Source: Onthophagus taurus (taxonomy: Eukaryota > Arthropoda > Insecta > Coleoptera > Scarabaeidae). Taken from it: 64,000 nt of DNA. The position numbers were made by a program, and so were the translations under genes. Location: positions 4,464,001 to 4,528,000 of the forward strand of contig NC_091976.1 in NCBI RefSeq assembly GCF_036711975.1, given 5' to 3'. Under the pieces are notes generated by a model that was not told the origin of the DNA, searched no databases, and was given only the letters and a program-made list of their open reading frames with translations. Shown here one piece after another: positions 7,224-58,976 of this stretch. Every line of letters begins with the position of its first letter. Positions within the stretch are counted from its first letter, which is position 1.

Positions 7224-7607
7224 TTATACATATGACCCGCTTCCTGTTTGAAGTAGGAATTTTATACATAAATGCCCGCAATTGTACTGATTGTCCTTTT
7301 GATAATTATCGTGGTTGTATATAATTTGAGTGTCTTTAAAGTACTTTAAAAGTTCTTTGGGGGGTTTGAGATCCCGATAACTATCAAAATAGAACACTCT
7401 ATTACCGGATTTTCTATAGGCTACCCAATGTGTTCCATCTCCGCTTTGTACATCTAAATTCACCACCGCCGCTTCATCCGTTTTAGGGCCCCCTTTTGGT
7501 AATGCGTTTCGCATATAGACGCCGCGGAATTTTGGGATATTTAGAGATTTAGCGTAACGTAGTATATCAAAGTTGGTTAGAGGTCTCTTGGGTAGCAGCC
7601 TTAAAAG
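7224..7607 (-). CDS. Adenain-like cysteine protease (A1), entered by -1 frameshift
   Basis: The frame is open from the frameshift heptamer at 7607-7613 to the stop at 7224. Visible are GTHW (His), YFDSY (Asp), a Gln before the final motif and NCGHLC (Cys), the adenovirus-protease/Ulp1 order. The first in-frame ATG is at 7514, inside the conserved part. The conserved upstream segment (PLTNFDILRYAKSLNIP) has no ATG, so translation most plausibly enters by -1 slippage from PLA2. It would mature capsid proteins. Confidence 0.8.
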   Translation of the reverse strand, partial: LLRLLPKRPLTNFDILRYAKSLNIPKFRGVYMRNALPKGGPKTDEAAVVNLDVQSGDGTHWVAYRKSGNRVFYFDSYRDLKPPKELLKYFKDTQIIYNHDNYQKDNQYNCGHLCIKFLLQTGSGSYV

Positions 7608-8476
7608 TTTTTTTGAGTCTTCTTCTTCTTCGTTAAATATATACCCAATCCCTTTTTATACCTTTTAATGTAAATACCACTCCCCGTCTTTCGGATCGCA
7701 ATGTCCTCCATTGCTTTATTGTGCCGCTCAGCTTCTTTCATTTTATCCTTCGCCTCTTGAGTTTTCTTTACTGCTCTATAGACTCCGGCCGCGCCTCCGG
7801 ATAGTGCGCTGAGAGCTGACAGTCCGGCAAATATCGCAGGTAAAAGTGGTAATATTCCTCCTCGTTTAACTGGAATTGGGATTGTTCGTGGAATTTTAAC
7901 TATTCGCTTTCCACCTACAGACTTTACGGCTATGCGAGCACCTTTCAACGCCAATCGCGCCGCTTCTCGTAAACTATCGGTGTTTTTCGGTAAATCATTT
8001 GCTATACGCTTAACTATCCCCTTTTGAAAGGTCACCTGTTTACCGCCACTTTTCGACTTCAATGATCCACCTCGACGTTTTCTCCGGCTTTTACCACCTT
8101 TACGCTTATGCCCCATGCCTAATTTACGTTTCGCTTTCATAGCGTTTGTAACTAACCACGCCGCAGTCTTTTCACCAAGTGATGAGTCTTTCGCCTTCAC
8201 CCTTTCCCAAGCGGTATCCTCTAAACGCCTATCGGCCTCGTGACGTTGATCTAATGTTTTATTATCCCTATAGGCTATATCGTGTTCTCTACAGGCGCGA
8301 TCTAGCGGATTTATACCTTTTTCACCTCGTGCCAAGCGTTTATCCAACTTTGTTCCGGGCCCGCAAAATTGATATCCGGGAATGTGTAACTCTACGGGGA
8401 GTTTGTTGATAATTGAATTTAAAATTCCTCCACCTCGAATTGAAGCTACTGTTGATGTGTTACCTTGAGCGAGCAT
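7601..8476 (-). CDS. PLA2-domain minor capsid protein (A1)
   Basis: From ATG 8476 (MLAQGNTST) an open frame of about 291 codons. Residues about 30-75 carry a parvovirus-type phospholipase A2 core: GYQFCGPGTKL (calcium loop) and LDRACREHDIAY (HD dyad). Then come Lys/Arg/Gly-rich stretches and a hydrophobic segment (LPLLPAIFAGLSALSALSGGAAGVY) suited to membrane contact. A2 has extra glycines in the basic linker. It ends within a -1 frameshift site. Confidence 0.85.
   Translation of the reverse strand: MLAQGNTSTVASIRGGGILNSIINKLPVELHIPGYQFCGPGTKLDKRLARGEKGINPLDRACREHDIAYRDNKTLDQRHEADRRLEDTAWERVKAKDSSLGEKTAAWLVTNAMKAKRKLGMGHKRKGGKSRRKRRGGSLKSKSGGKQVTFQKGIVKRIANDLPKNTDSLREAARLALKGARIAVKSVGGKRIVKIPRTIPIPVKRGGILPLLPAIFAGLSALSALSGGAAGVYRAVKKTQEAKDKMKEAERHNKAMEDIAIRKTGSGIYIKRYKKGLGIYLTKKKKTQKNF
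7607..7613 (-). promoter_or_regulatory. -1 ribosomal frameshift heptamer (A1)
   Basis: On the minus strand the PLA2 frame reads CAA AAA AAC TTT TAA. A_AAA_AAC is a canonical X_XXY_YYZ slippery heptamer in the zero frame, two codons before the stop. Slippage by -1 leads directly into the protease frame. The heptamer and spacing are the same in A2 at 54101-54107. Confidence 0.7.
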
Positions 8477-8521
8477 TACTCTCAAGTGATGCGATTTCAA
8501 ACATAACCGGGACCTTTATAT

Positions 8522-53171: not shown

Positions 53172-53216
53172 ATATAAAGGCACCGGTTATGTTTGAAATC
53201 GCATCACTTGAGAGTA
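53169..53216. promoter_or_regulatory. 45-bp bidirectional promoter between ATPase and PLA2
   Basis: CATATATAAAGGC at 53169-53181 gives a plus-strand TATA box overlapping the ATPase start codon (CAT). The PLA2 ATG at 53217 is 36-40 bp downstream, so its leader can be only a few bases. The same layout is found in A1 (8477-8524). Confidence 0.6.
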
Positions 53217-54113
53217 ATGCTCACTCAAGGTAACACATCAACAGTAGCTTCGATTCGAGGTGGAGGAATTTTAAATTCAATTATCAACAAACTCCCCGTA
53301 GAGTTACACATTCCCGGATATCAATTTTGCGGGCCCGGAACAAAGTTGAATAAACGCTTGGCACGAGGTGAAAAAGGCATAAATCCGTTAGATCGCGCCT
53401 GTAGAGAACACGATATAGCCTATAGGGATAATAAAACATTAGATCAACGTCACGAGGCCGATAGGCGTTTAGAGGATACCGCTTGGGAAAGGGTGAAGGC
53501 GAAAGACTCATCACTTGGTGAAAAGACTGCGGCGTGGTTAGTCACAAACGCTATGAAAGCGAAACGTAAATTAGGCATGGGGCATAAGCGTAAAGGTGTT
53601 GGTGGTAAAAGCCGGCGAAAACGTCGAGGTGGATCATTGAAGTCGAAAAGTGGTGGTGGTGGTGGTGGTAAACAGGTGACCTTTCAAAAGGGGATAGTTA
53701 AGCGTATAGCAAATGATTTACCAAAAAACACCGATAGTTTACGAGAAGCGGCGCGATTGGCGTTGAAAGGTGCTCGCATAGCTGTAAAGTCTGTAGGCGG
53801 AAAGCGAAAAGTTAAAATTCCACGAACAATCCCAATTCCGGTTAAACGAGGAGGAATATTACCACTTTTACCTGCGATATTCGCCGGACTGTCAGCTCTC
53901 AGCGCACTATCCGGAGGCGCGGCCGGAGTCTATAGAGCAGTAAAGAAAACTCAAGAGGCGAAGGATAAAATGAAAGAAGCTGAGCGGCACAATAAAGCAA
54001 TGGAGGACATTGCGATCGGAAAGACGGGGAGTGGTATTTACATTAAAAGGTACAAAAAGGGATTGGGTATATATTTAACGAAGAAGAAGAAGAAGACTCA
54101 AAAAAACTTTTAA
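53217..54113 (+). CDS. PLA2-domain minor capsid protein (A2)
   Basis: 298 codons from ATG 53217 (MLTQGNTST). The PLA2 core lies near residues 30-75: GYQFCGPGT (Ca-binding) and CREHDIAYRD (His-Asp catalytic pair), as in parvovirus VP1 unique regions, where it opens endosomal membranes. Arg/Lys/Gly-rich linkers and an alanine-rich hydrophobic segment (about residue 215) follow. Six consecutive glycine codons distinguish it from A1. The C-terminal KKKTQKNF overlaps a -1 frameshift site. Confidence 0.88.
   Translation: MLTQGNTSTVASIRGGGILNSIINKLPVELHIPGYQFCGPGTKLNKRLARGEKGINPLDRACREHDIAYRDNKTLDQRHEADRRLEDTAWERVKAKDSSLGEKTAAWLVTNAMKAKRKLGMGHKRKGVGGKSRRKRRGGSLKSKSGGGGGGKQVTFQKGIVKRIANDLPKNTDSLREAARLALKGARIAVKSVGGKRKVKIPRTIPIPVKRGGILPLLPAIFAGLSALSALSGGAAGVYRAVKKTQEAKDKMKEAERHNKAMEDIAIGKTGSGIYIKRYKKGLGIYLTKKKKKTQKNF
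54101..54107 (+). promoter_or_regulatory. -1 ribosomal frameshift heptamer (A2)
   Basis: A_AAA_AAC in the PLA2 frame (CAA AAA AAC), followed after TTT by TAA. Slippage by one base continues at 54107 into the protease frame, open to 54490. This class of heptamer is among the most efficient known (for example retroviral gag/pro). No clear downstream pseudoknot can be called by eye. Confidence 0.72.
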
Positions 54114-54490
54114 GGCTGCTACCCAAGAGACCTCTAACCAACTTTGATATACTACGTTACGCTAAATCTCTAAATATCCCAAAATTCCGCGGCGTCTATA
54201 TGCGAAACGCATTACCAAAAGGGGGCCCTAAAACGGATGAAGCGGCGGTGGTGAATTTAGATGTACAAAGCGGAGATGGAACGCATTGGGTAGCCTATAG
54301 AAAATCCGGTAATAGAGTGTTCTATTTTGATAGTTATGGGGATCTCAAACCCCCCAAAGAACTTTTAAAGTACTTTAAAGACACTCAAATTATATACAAC
54401 CACGATAATTATCAAAAGGACAATCAGTACAATTGCGGGCATTTATGTATAAAATTCCTACTTCAAACGGGAAACGGGTCATATGTATAA
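54107..54490 (+). CDS. Adenain-like cysteine protease (A2)
   Basis: 127 codons in the -1 frame. PLTNFDILRYAKSLNIPKFRG precedes the first ATG (54200), and I recognise this stretch as part of the conserved family N-terminus. Active-site order: His in GDGTHW, Asp in YFDSYG, Gln in DNYQKDNQ, Cys in NCGHLC. It would process capsid precursors. It ends 2 bp before the penton ATG. Polinton proteases normally have their own start; this one seems to lack a usable one. Confidence 0.87.
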   Translation, partial: LLRLLPKRPLTNFDILRYAKSLNIPKFRGVYMRNALPKGGPKTDEAAVVNLDVQSGDGTHWVAYRKSGNRVFYFDSYGDLKPPKELLKYFKDTQIIYNHDNYQKDNQYNCGHLCIKFLLQTGNGSYV

Positions 54491-57257: not shown

Positions 57258-57359
57258 GAAGTTGTTAAATTTTTTTTGTAATACATATATTAACTTTTAT
57301 TTATTGTATTTATTTTTGAATCCTTCATGCATTCAGTGTCTGACCTCCATCACGCAAAC

Positions 57360-58976
57360 ATGTACATTGCGAGAGTTATTTTAGTATATACGCTCTGGGC
57401 GCTTCCAATACGAATTTTAATGGAAGATTTGATGTACGATAGGGATATGGAAATCTATAAATATCTCAAAGCATTTGGATATTTAAATGGGAATGTGAGC
57501 GGTTTACATCATCATCAGATGGAATATACAACAACAATGACGGAAGGGTTACGTAAATTGCAGGAATATTTTCACCTGCCAGTATCGGGTGAAGTTGATT
57601 TTAAAACTTTGGATTTGATTGGTAAACCAAGATGTGGGAATAAAGACTTGGAAGACATATCAGTAGACGCTAAACGTACGATACATCGAAAGTGGGGGAT
57701 CCCAATAGTTAAATGGGCCATCTATAATAAATATCCAGATGGCTTTCCCAATATCGTTGAAAGGGCATTTGCGGTTTGGGCTAAGCATATAGATTTAAAG
57801 TTTCAGAGCTCGTTTACCGACGTCAACATTCTAATCGGGTTTAAAGGTTACAACCATACGTGCATAAGGAACGTTGGATCAATGTGTGGTAGTACATTCA
57901 AAAATGGGATTTTAGCTCACGCATACTATCCTTATATTAATGGACGTAATGTTGAAATCCATATAAATTCAGATTTAGAGTTTGATTTATCCAACTCTAC
58001 AGTAGATGGGAAATATAACCTATTTTTGGTAATGGTGCATGAAATTGGACATTCCTTAGGTTTAATGCATCGAGTTGAACTCGATTCCATCATGCATCCC
58101 AACTATGGTAACATGAGAATTGAGGATTTCAAGTTGAATAGCAGAGATATTGTGGCAATTCAAGCTATATATGGTAGACCCAAATTGTATACATCATCGA
58201 CTGTTTCAAGTCACGTTACATCATCATATAGGACCACGACGAGTCGGTCTACGACAAATCCTGCCGTTCAACCCTCACCCTTTAGAGACGTTTGCGATGT
58301 GGATTCAAAGTTTTCCGGTTTTTTGATTCACTATCAAACCATGTACGTGTTTTACAAACAATGGGTTTGGTTAATAGATTTAAAGTCTAAACGACCTAAA
58401 CAACCCAATCCTATAGACATAAATGATTGGCTGCCGACTTTGAGGAATGTTTTTCGTACTGTAGACTATAGTTATAAAGTGTCTATCTCGCCTATAGGTG
58501 ACCTTATACTTATAATGGAAAATGCAATATACAGAATTGATTTTAAGAGTATGAATGTGCGGTCTGTGTGGCCGTTCACTTCCACCGAGTTAGGGTTTAA
58601 TAATTTTACTCGAGTTAACGGGATAGTTACAAGCAATTACGGTTTACCTTACATATTTTTCGATGATATGTACGCAATTCAAGTGGATTTTAATTACTTT
58701 AGAAAGGAGAGAGTTATAGTTTCGATTGGTGAACTTTTTCCGGGAATCCCAACTTCTTTCAATGGGATTTACAAAGGTTCCGACGGCATATTTAATTTCT
58801 TTGTTGGCGATCGAATCCTCCAATACGATGAATATTTAAAGGAGGTTGTAGGCACCTCTGACAAGAGTCTATCGATATTAGGGATAACTTGTCCCTATAT
58901 ATCAATTTTAGATCAATTGAAATCTCTCCTCTCAACAATCATTTCAACCAATCTCTCAATTCCCATAAATTATTGA
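57360..58976 (+). CDS. Matrix metalloproteinase (zinc, hemopexin-like), captured
   Basis: 538 codons from ATG 57360, placed downstream of a TCAGT initiator at 57333-57337. Order: hydrophobic signal segment (MYIARVILVYTLWAL), peptidoglycan-binding-like prodomain (LRKLQEYFHLPVSGEVD), cysteine switch KPRCGNKD, catalytic domain with HEIGHSLGLMH and the Met-turn SIMHPNY (three zinc ligands plus Glu), a Ser/Thr linker, and a hemopexin-type C-terminal domain bracketed by Cys (CDVDSKFSGF ... GITCP). This is the complete secreted MMP layout. Such an enzyme could degrade basement membrane; granuloviruses carry a comparable gene. It is intact here and broken in A1. Confidence 0.9.
   Translation: MYIARVILVYTLWALPIRILMEDLMYDRDMEIYKYLKAFGYLNGNVSGLHHHQMEYTTTMTEGLRKLQEYFHLPVSGEVDFKTLDLIGKPRCGNKDLEDISVDAKRTIHRKWGIPIVKWAIYNKYPDGFPNIVERAFAVWAKHIDLKFQSSFTDVNILIGFKGYNHTCIRNVGSMCGSTFKNGILAHAYYPYINGRNVEIHINSDLEFDLSNSTVDGKYNLFLVMVHEIGHSLGLMHRVELDSIMHPNYGNMRIEDFKLNSRDIVAIQAIYGRPKLYTSSTVSSHVTSSYRTTTSRSTTNPAVQPSPFRDVCDVDSKFSGFLIHYQTMYVFYKQWVWLIDLKSKRPKQPNPIDINDWLPTLRNVFRTVDYSYKVSISPIGDLILIMENAIYRIDFKSMNVRSVWPFTSTELGFNNFTRVNGIVTSNYGLPYIFFDDMYAIQVDFNYFRKERVIVSIGELFPGIPTSFNGIYKGSDGIFNFFVGDRILQYDEYLKEVVGTSDKSLSILGITCPYISILDQLKSLLSTIISTNLSIPINY

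What the first reader, a model, noticed from the sequence alone, without database searches (positions are those of the whole stretch)
54101..54107. Canonical -1 frameshift site joins PLA2 minor capsid protein to the adenain-like protease
In A2 the PLA2 frame ends CAA AAA AAC TTT TAA, a perfect A_AAA_AAC heptamer two codons before the stop. The -1 frame is open from there through the whole protease. A conserved segment of the protease lies upstream of its first ATG (54200). A1 has the same heptamer, spacing and missing ATG (7607-7613). A Gag-Pro-like fusion in a DNA Polinton would be unusual: it would deliver a set ratio of protease into the capsid. I do not know of it being described for Polintons.
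Basis: partly seen in the sequence, partly recalled or inferred. Interest (0 to 1): 0.88.

Follow-up and report, generated by a model that had tools for sequence, protein, structure and literature searches.

The report
Frameshift-made capsid-protease fusion in insect Polintons
A family of virus-like DNA elements in insects appears to make its particle-maturing protease only when ribosomes slip back one base at the end of a capsid-associated gene, a retrovirus-style trick that was not expected in these DNA elements.

Summary
The site is real, in phase, and conserved far beyond the two near-identical window copies. The host is the beetle Onthophagus taurus. In its genome eight element families (proteases down to 46% identical) carry A_AAA_AAC in phase at the end of the PLA2 gene, and the adenain-like protease follows in the -1 frame; seven lack an ATG in its first 33 residues, the eighth (F58) has one 13 codons in. 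A ninth family (F48) has T_TTT_TTA instead; a tenth has neither, but an ATG overlapping the PLA2 stop. Of 240 PLA2 relatives from insects and metagenomes, 227 end in Lys-Asn plus 0-2 residues, as A_AAA_AAC beside a stop predicts; in all 227 the residue before can have an A-ending codon. From the heptamer the protease folds as a complete adenain-type domain; from the first ATG it would lose a helix and a strand. Best explanation: programmed -1 frameshifting that makes a PLA2-protease fusion. Only F58 has a strong downstream stem; the other seven have the stop 0-1 codon behind the heptamer, perhaps the stimulator (inference); F48 has neither. No expression data. Slippery-site fusions in adintoviruses were proposed before for other gene pairs (PMC11071296).

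The parts
53178..54113 (+). Zero-frame ORF of element A2: PLA2 minor capsid/core-like protein (first ATG 53217), ends ...TQKNF*
   Evidence: Pfam Phospholip_A2_4 E=3.3e-12; translation
54101..54107 (+). Slippery heptamer A_AAA_AAC, in phase with the PLA2 frame
   Evidence: conserved in eight families
54111..54113 (+). Zero-frame stop TAA, one codon after the heptamer; possible stimulator by termination pausing (inference)
   Evidence: protein ends 0-2 residues after KN in 227 of 240 relatives
54047..54490 (+). -1 frame, stop to stop; the protease is the part from 54101 on (129 residues)
   Evidence: adenain profile match E=3.8e-5; model pLDDT 90.5; Foldseek top 1nln E=6.2e-6
54200..54202 (+). 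First ATG of the -1 frame = residue 34 of 129; a start here would lose helix 14-23 and most of strand 29-34
54284..54286 (+). Predicted catalytic His (H62, GTHW motif)
   Evidence: invariant in 77 aligned sequences; aligns with adenain GVHW
54413..54436 (+). Predicted catalytic Gln (Q105, 54413-54415) to Cys (C112, 54434-54436)
   Evidence: invariant in 77 aligned sequences; both align with adenain; that these are the catalytic residues is recalled
53907..53921 (+). LSGGA, candidate protease cleavage motif in the C-terminal half of the PLA2 protein (lead only)
   Evidence: [MIL]xGGx at a fixed distance in 200 of 224 anchored relatives, 16 more had no anchor; that this fits adenain specificity is recalled
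7601..8515 (-). PLA2 zero-frame ORF of element A1
7607..7613 (-). A_AAA_AAC heptamer of A1
7224..7655 (-). -1 frame with the protease of A1

Best explanation
Programmed -1 ribosomal frameshifting. Most ribosomes end at the PLA2 stop and make the PLA2 minor capsid/core-like protein ending in Lys-Asn. A fraction slips back one base on A_AAA_AAC and reads on into the adenain-like cysteine protease, giving a PLA2-protease fusion. This would build the protease into the assembling particle in a minority of subunits and in cis, from where it could cut itself and structural proteins. Shown by sequence: in-phase site, dual reading, no ATG in the first 33 protease residues in seven of the eight A_AAA_AAC families (F58 has one about 13 codons in), selection on the stretch behind the site, deep conservation. 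Inferred: that slippage happens, its efficiency, the stop codon close behind the site as stimulator, and packaging and cleavage by the fusion.
For: Exact in-phase site. Of 49 distinct junctions in 83 loci, 35 have in-phase A_AAA_AAC and 4 in-phase T_TTT_TTA; 10 have neither. The eight A_AAA_AAC families have proteases 46-77% identical to one another (two B subtypes 90%). In F52, F53 and B representatives the window between the last -1 stop and the zero-frame stop is only 13-22 nt (one B copy 25). 227 of 240 PLA2 relatives end KN plus 0-2 residues, chance about 2.5%. The residue before KN is never one without an A-ending codon (0 of 227, against 22-108 of 227 at each of the eleven positions before it), and what follows is a stop or a residue that a T codon can encode in 211 of 227, as -1 Leu (CTN) requires. 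Of the 38 of 119 relatives' proteases that reach at least 7 residues beyond the LPxR motif, 26 have KKL there. dN/dS between heptamer and ATG column is below 1 in all six comparisons where it can be computed, of nine made (0.17-0.62). Adenain fold complete from the heptamer. F58, with the stop five codons away, has a strong stem starting about 9 nt behind the heptamer (z=-5.6).
Against: No transcript, ribosome profiling or protein data. No stem or pseudoknot above shuffles close behind the heptamer in A, B, C61, F56, F53, F52 (F53 reaches z=-3.4 only with a 110-nt stretch), and no covarying pair in the A/B/L040/C alignment. F48 has neither a stem nor a near stop (13-15 codons behind T_TTT_TTA), and T_TTT_TTA is only mildly unexpected by itself: other in-phase canonical heptamers occur 0-4 times per gene. 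13 of 240 relatives lack the KN end, among them the Tribolium (P0182, P0332) and Leptopilina (P0209) entries and one of Popillia (P0356); their DNA could not be read. F58 has one -1 ATG before the homologous position. Nucleotide evidence comes from one genome; the families are related, so they are not fully independent.
Confidence: 0.87

Rival explanations
1. The protease is made by its own initiation: termination-reinitiation, a non-AUG codon, or the ATG at 54200.
For: In L043 and its broken relative L100 an ATG overlaps the PLA2 stop (CAATGA) just before the protease and there is no A_AAA_AAC or T_TTT_TTA, so this solution exists in the group. Many relatives' annotated proteases start just before the LPxRxLTN motif. 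F58 has an internal ATG about 13 codons into the protease.
Against: A start at 54200 loses a conserved helix and strand. F56 has no ATG in the whole 137-residue frame. It does not explain the in-phase heptamer, the A-ending-codon rule before KN, or KKL.
Confidence: 0.06
2. Transcriptional slippage on the A-run makes a fraction of mRNAs with one base fewer.
For: The site holds a run of 6-7 A in most families.
Against: Slippage does not care about codon phase, yet the run is read in one phase, as Lys-Asn, in 227 of 240 relatives, and in the eight families the seventh base is C. F48 uses T_TTT_TTA. The runs are short.
Confidence: 0.04
3. A spliced mRNA supplies the start of the protease.
For: Cannot be excluded without RNA. 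The gene model P0182 (Tribolium castaneum) joins a PLA2 ORF to other downstream coding sequence.
Against: Does not explain the heptamer, its phase or the stop 0-2 codons behind it; in F52 the -1 frame opens only 3 nt before the heptamer.
Confidence: 0.03

Closest known systems
Retroviral gag-pro -1 frameshift sites with A_AAA_AAC (MMTV, HTLV, BLV and others; PMC3835772, passages of its table)
   Same: Same heptamer; a structural gene is joined to its protease in the -1 frame.
   Different: Cysteine (adenain/Ulp1-type) protease and DNA element; most families here lack a detectable 3' stem or pseudoknot and have the zero-frame stop 0-1 codon behind the site.
Slippery sites proposed in adintoviruses: Penton isoforms and 'Hexon-Adenain (Hexain)' (PMC11071296, passages)
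   Same: Same virus group, -1 frameshifting, adenain as partner in one case.
   Different: Other genes; stated there as a hypothetical KnotInFrame prediction. The term PLA2 has 0 occurrences in that paper's main text.
[quoted passage not shown]
   Same: A nearby zero-frame stop matters for -1 frameshifting independently of a 3' structure.
   Different: Other heptamer, RNA virus.
Adenovirus protease with its 11-residue cofactor (1nln). That the cofactor is the C-terminus of minor capsid protein pVI is recalled
   Same: A minor capsid protein's C-terminus is tied to the maturation protease; same protease fold.
   Different: There a cleaved peptide activates a separately made protease; here the two would be one translation product.
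Spodoptera frugiperda Mavericks with PLA2-domain CAP and PRO (PMC5803895, passages)
   Same: Same two genes.
   Different: Both 'frameshift' passages there concern errantiviruses, not a CAP-PRO frameshift.

Membership tests
Programmed -1 ribosomal frameshift site | X_XXY_YYZ heptamer in phase at the gene overlap | tested here: met
Programmed -1 ribosomal frameshift site | -1 ORF under protein-level selection from the site on | tested here: met
Programmed -1 ribosomal frameshift site | Conserved in divergent relatives | tested here: met
Programmed -1 ribosomal frameshift site | 3' stimulatory stem or pseudoknot (usual, not obligatory) | tested here: not met
   absent near the site in A and most families; strong stem in F58 only, L040 borderline
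Programmed -1 ribosomal frameshift site | Measured frameshift product | not testable with these tools
   no expression data
Adenain-type cysteine protease | Catalytic His, Gln, Cys and the fold | tested here: met
Polinton/Maverick (adintovirus-like) element | rve integrase, A32-like ATPase, double jelly-roll capsid protein, protease | tested here: met
   Pfam rve, Pox_A32, DJR-like_dom in A2; protease
Polinton/Maverick (adintovirus-like) element | Protein-primed PolB and terminal inverted repeats | not tested
   not looked at
Retroviral Gag-Pro | Aspartic protease fused to Gag | tested here: not met
   cysteine protease behind a PLA2 protein: works like it, is not one

The most novel reading that the evidence does not exclude
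A clade-wide rule of insect Polintons: the maturation protease is made only as a frameshift extension of a PLA2/membrane-active minor capsid protein, at a slippery site stimulated by the stop codon that sits 0-2 codons behind it rather than by an RNA fold. Lineages that change the site compensate (T_TTT_TTA, a stem, or an ATGA start). The adenovirus habit of activating its protease with a minor capsid protein's C-terminal peptide may be a functional counterpart or descendant of such a fusion.
Probability: 0.3. Interest if true: 0.85.

Novelty: new variant of a known kind. Interest (0 to 1): 0.74.

Why it matters
Recoding of a structural protein into a protease is a hallmark of retroviruses. 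Finding it conserved in DNA elements that encode adenovirus-like capsid proteins would mean that the same dosage problem was solved the same way twice, would explain why annotation of these elements misses or truncates the protease, and gives a sharp test of whether insect Polintons make particles. It also offers a natural set of sites in which a nearby stop codon may replace the RNA stimulator.

Tried and rejected
Downstream stem or pseudoknot as the stimulator in the window copies: rejected; folding is not better than shuffles, and the A/B/L040/C alignment has no covarying pair. My pseudoknot scan was a simple stacking score.

DNA from other species: IMG/VR with protease queries found nothing. 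With PLA2 it found 8 loci that match over 33-39 residues only, which I did not use. GTDB contigs found nothing, and the phage collection had no match for one PLA2 relative. Nucleotide evidence therefore stays within one genome; other species are seen as proteins only.

Junctions with neither A_AAA_AAC nor T_TTT_TTA in phase (10 of 49 distinct): L043 has its own ATG; in L045 and L050 the heptamer is changed and the protease frame is broken (L045 keeps an in-phase GGGTTTA, as F58 also has); L046 has a longer A-run with in-phase A_AAA_AAA; L022, L051 and L097 have the two frames run together; L023, L052 and L064 are truncated or altered. I did not count these as evidence against, and report them here. 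The 83 loci overlap: many places were fetched twice, once around the protease and once around PLA2, which is why I count distinct junctions. Only part of the 150 protease places was read.

Uniform heptamers in high-copy families (63 of 63 F53, 65 of 65 F52, 39 of 39 F48 sites) are weak evidence: the copies are nearly identical, and the patterns allowed at most 2 mismatches outside the seven free bases.

Literature: ten searches listed no paper whose title or abstract start describes a PLA2-protease frameshift in Polintons. I saw passages of eleven papers (PMC11071296, PMC5803895, PMC8363768, PMC12567637, PMC11071308, PMC8097293, PMC10120064, PMC12721341, PMC12945077, PMC5009743, PMC3835772) and only listings of the rest; none was read whole. 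Starrett et al. 2021 (adintoviruses) is not held, so it could not be checked.

Full report
Observation. The heptamer AAAAAAC is at 54101-54107. In the PLA2 frame (53178-54113, first ATG 53217) it reads CAA AAA AAC TTT TAA, so it is a canonical A_AAA_AAC one codon before the stop. The -1 frame is open from 54047 to 54490, and its first ATG is at 54200. Element A1 repeats this on the other strand at 7607-7613, but A1 and A2 are almost identical, so this adds little. The host is Onthophagus taurus: relative P0121 is 99% identical and lies on a contig of 34,988,216 bp, the length of contig C11.

What the -1 frame is. Pfam finds no family above its cut-off for it. A profile of the frame and 20 relatives matches adenoviral proteinase (1avp) at E=3.8e-5 and ASFV pS273R at 1.4e-4. 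The model of the 129 residues read from the heptamer has mean pLDDT 90.5 and pTM 0.85, and its best solved match is adenovirus 2 proteinase with its 11-residue cofactor (1nln, E=6.2e-6). His62, Gln105 and Cys112 are invariant in 77 sequences. The 54200 ATG is residue 34; starting there would lose helix 14-23 and nearly all of strand 29-34.

Families in the same genome. The protease search returned 150 scored matches and the PLA2 search 135; both are lower bounds. I read 83 loci, partly overlapping, with 49 distinct junctions. 35 have in-phase A_AAA_AAC: family A (the window), B, L040, C61, F58, F56, F53, F52. Four have in-phase T_TTT_TTA (family F48; three further F48 copies, L101, L102 and L103, also keep it). 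Ten have neither and are listed under Tried and rejected. In L040 (one copy) and in the F53 copies read (L047, L058) the PLA2 frame is broken further upstream; an unbroken F53-type PLA2 protein, P0247, ends in VAKN. Proteases of the eight A_AAA_AAC families are 46-77% identical to one another, apart from the two B subtypes at 90%. The flanking codons differ (CAA, TCA, AGA, GCA/ACA before; TTT, TTG, TTA, TCT or a stop behind), so what is conserved is the heptamer and its phase. Given Lys-Asn, the pooled chance of A_AAA_AAC by codon usage is 0.099 per family (0.72 x 0.35 x 0.39); families are related, so powers of this number overstate the case.

The window for slipping is narrow. Between the last stop of the -1 frame and the first stop of the zero frame there are 13 nt in F52, 19 in F53 and 22-25 in B, L040 and C61, and the heptamer is inside each time; it is wider in A (52-67), F56 (49) and F58 (109-130). 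F56 has no ATG anywhere in its 137-residue protease frame. Between the heptamer and the column of the first ATG, seven of eight representatives have no ATG and all eight are open in the -1 frame, while the zero frame has 1-6 stops. The exception is F58, with one ATG about 13 codons into the protease, behind its LTDD motif. dN/dS in this stretch is 0.17-0.62 in the six comparisons within the A/B/L040/C group; in the other three of nine synonymous sites are saturated. This stretch therefore behaves as translated in the -1 frame, although it lies before the first ATG in seven of the eight families.

Beyond this genome. The three protein searches gave 414 protease relatives, and 1292 and 607 PLA2 relatives (the last with only the 7995 best candidates scored); each lists only its best 120. 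All 240 listed PLA2 relatives were used; they include a few of Onthophagus taurus itself (P0121, P0122, P0241, P0247). 227 end in Lys-Asn followed by 0 (55), 1 (96) or 2 (76) residues, none by 3-10; the expected rate is about 2.5%. The residue before KN is never F, Y, H, N, D, C, W or M, which lack an A-ending codon: 0 of 227, against 22 to 108 of 227 at each of the eleven positions before it. This is what A_AAA_AAC demands and a conserved peptide would not. Behind KN comes a stop or a residue that a T codon can encode in 211 of 227, as -1 Leu (CTN) demands. Of 119 protease relatives, 38 reach at least 7 residues beyond the LPxR motif, and 26 of these have KKL there. Named hosts include Tribolium, Leptinotarsa, Molorchus, Exocentrus, Anoplophora, Popillia, fireflies and the wasp Leptopilina. 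The 13 exceptions include gene models with odd ends (P0182 Tribolium, P0209 Leptopilina, P0325, P0356 Popillia) and others that look like true losses (P0249, P0256, P0295, P0300, P0310, P0320, P0329, P0332 Tribolium, P0335); I could not see their DNA.

Exceptions. F48 lacks A_AAA_AAC and an upstream ATG, but has T_TTT_TTA at all 39 junction sites found, also in L102 where the codon before it changed. This could be partly chance: other in-phase canonical heptamers occur 0-4 times per gene, the stop is 13-15 codons behind, and no stem follows. Some F48 copies also have an in-phase A_AAA_AAA. L043 and its broken relative L100 have neither heptamer, but an ATG that overlaps the PLA2 stop (CAATGA) just before the protease.

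Stimulator. In A, B, C61, F56, F53 and F52 no stem or pseudoknot close behind the heptamer beats shuffles; F53 reaches z=-3.4 only over 110 nt. L040 is borderline (z=-1.8 and -2.1). In these seven families the stop is 0-1 codon behind the heptamer. F58 has its stop five codons away and instead a stem beginning about 9 nt behind the heptamer (-19.5 kcal/mol, z=-5.6; L054 has the same sequence there). I infer that the stop codon, by slow termination, takes the place of the stem. A precedent is pea enation mosaic virus, where a stop 3 nt behind the site matters independently of structure (PMC5009743, passages). The same review counts A_AAA_AAC among the most shifty heptamers with mammalian ribosomes (passages). 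Efficient frameshifting without a 3' structure has been reported for Semliki Forest virus (PMC3835772, passages).

How it may work. Most ribosomes give the PLA2 protein; a minority gives PLA2-protease. The PLA2 protein's C-terminal half has a hydrophobic stretch and a LxGGA-type motif at a fixed distance in 200 of 224 anchored relatives. This fits the adenain consensus as I recall it, so the fused protease could cut there; this is a lead, not a result. Adenovirus activates its protease with a minor capsid protein's C-terminal peptide (the cofactor is in 1nln; its origin is recalled), so a physical tie between that protein and the protease has a parallel.

Novelty. Frameshifting and its sites are well known; retroviruses use the same heptamer for gag-pro (PMC3835772, passages). 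In adintoviruses slippery sites have been suggested for Penton isoforms and for 'Hexon-Adenain' fusions as hypothetical KnotInFrame predictions (PMC11071296, passages). I found no description of a PLA2-protease frameshift in ten searches of the held library (listings, and passages of eleven papers), and Starrett et al. 2021 was not readable. I therefore rate it a new variant of a known kind, with strong comparative evidence and no experiment.

Noticed in passing
L049:58-402 (reverse) and L049:1159-1614; L043: In families F48 and L043 the PLA2 protein is split: the catalytic half is a separate ORF (on the opposite strand in L049), and only the C-terminal half precedes the protease.
   Followed up: partly
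53907-53921: LxGGA-type motif at a fixed distance from the RHN motif in 200 of 224 anchored PLA2 relatives; candidate maturation site.
   Followed up: partly
54108-54199 and relatives: Synonymous differences are fewer just behind the heptamer (pS 0.36-0.57) than further on (0.65-0.82) in all six A/B/L040/C comparisons, without a conserved fold. Unexplained.
   Followed up: partly
57294-58973: Element A2 carries a matrixin-like metalloprotease ORF (Peptidase_M10 E=2.9e-28) next to a chromodomain ORF; possibly a captured host gene.
   Followed up: no
53723-53729: A second in-phase A_AAA_AAC inside the PLA2 gene of A2, not shared by A1.
   Followed up: yes
G000, families F53, F52, F48: 63, 65 and 39 near-identical junction sites: probably recent high-copy bursts of these elements.
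   Followed up: no
L097, L022, L051: Copies in which PLA2 and protease frames have run together into one open frame.
   Followed up: no
P0138, P0190, P0346: PLA2 relatives filed under Rickettsia endosymbiont or Enterobacter names; probably insect sequence in bacterial records.
   Followed up: no
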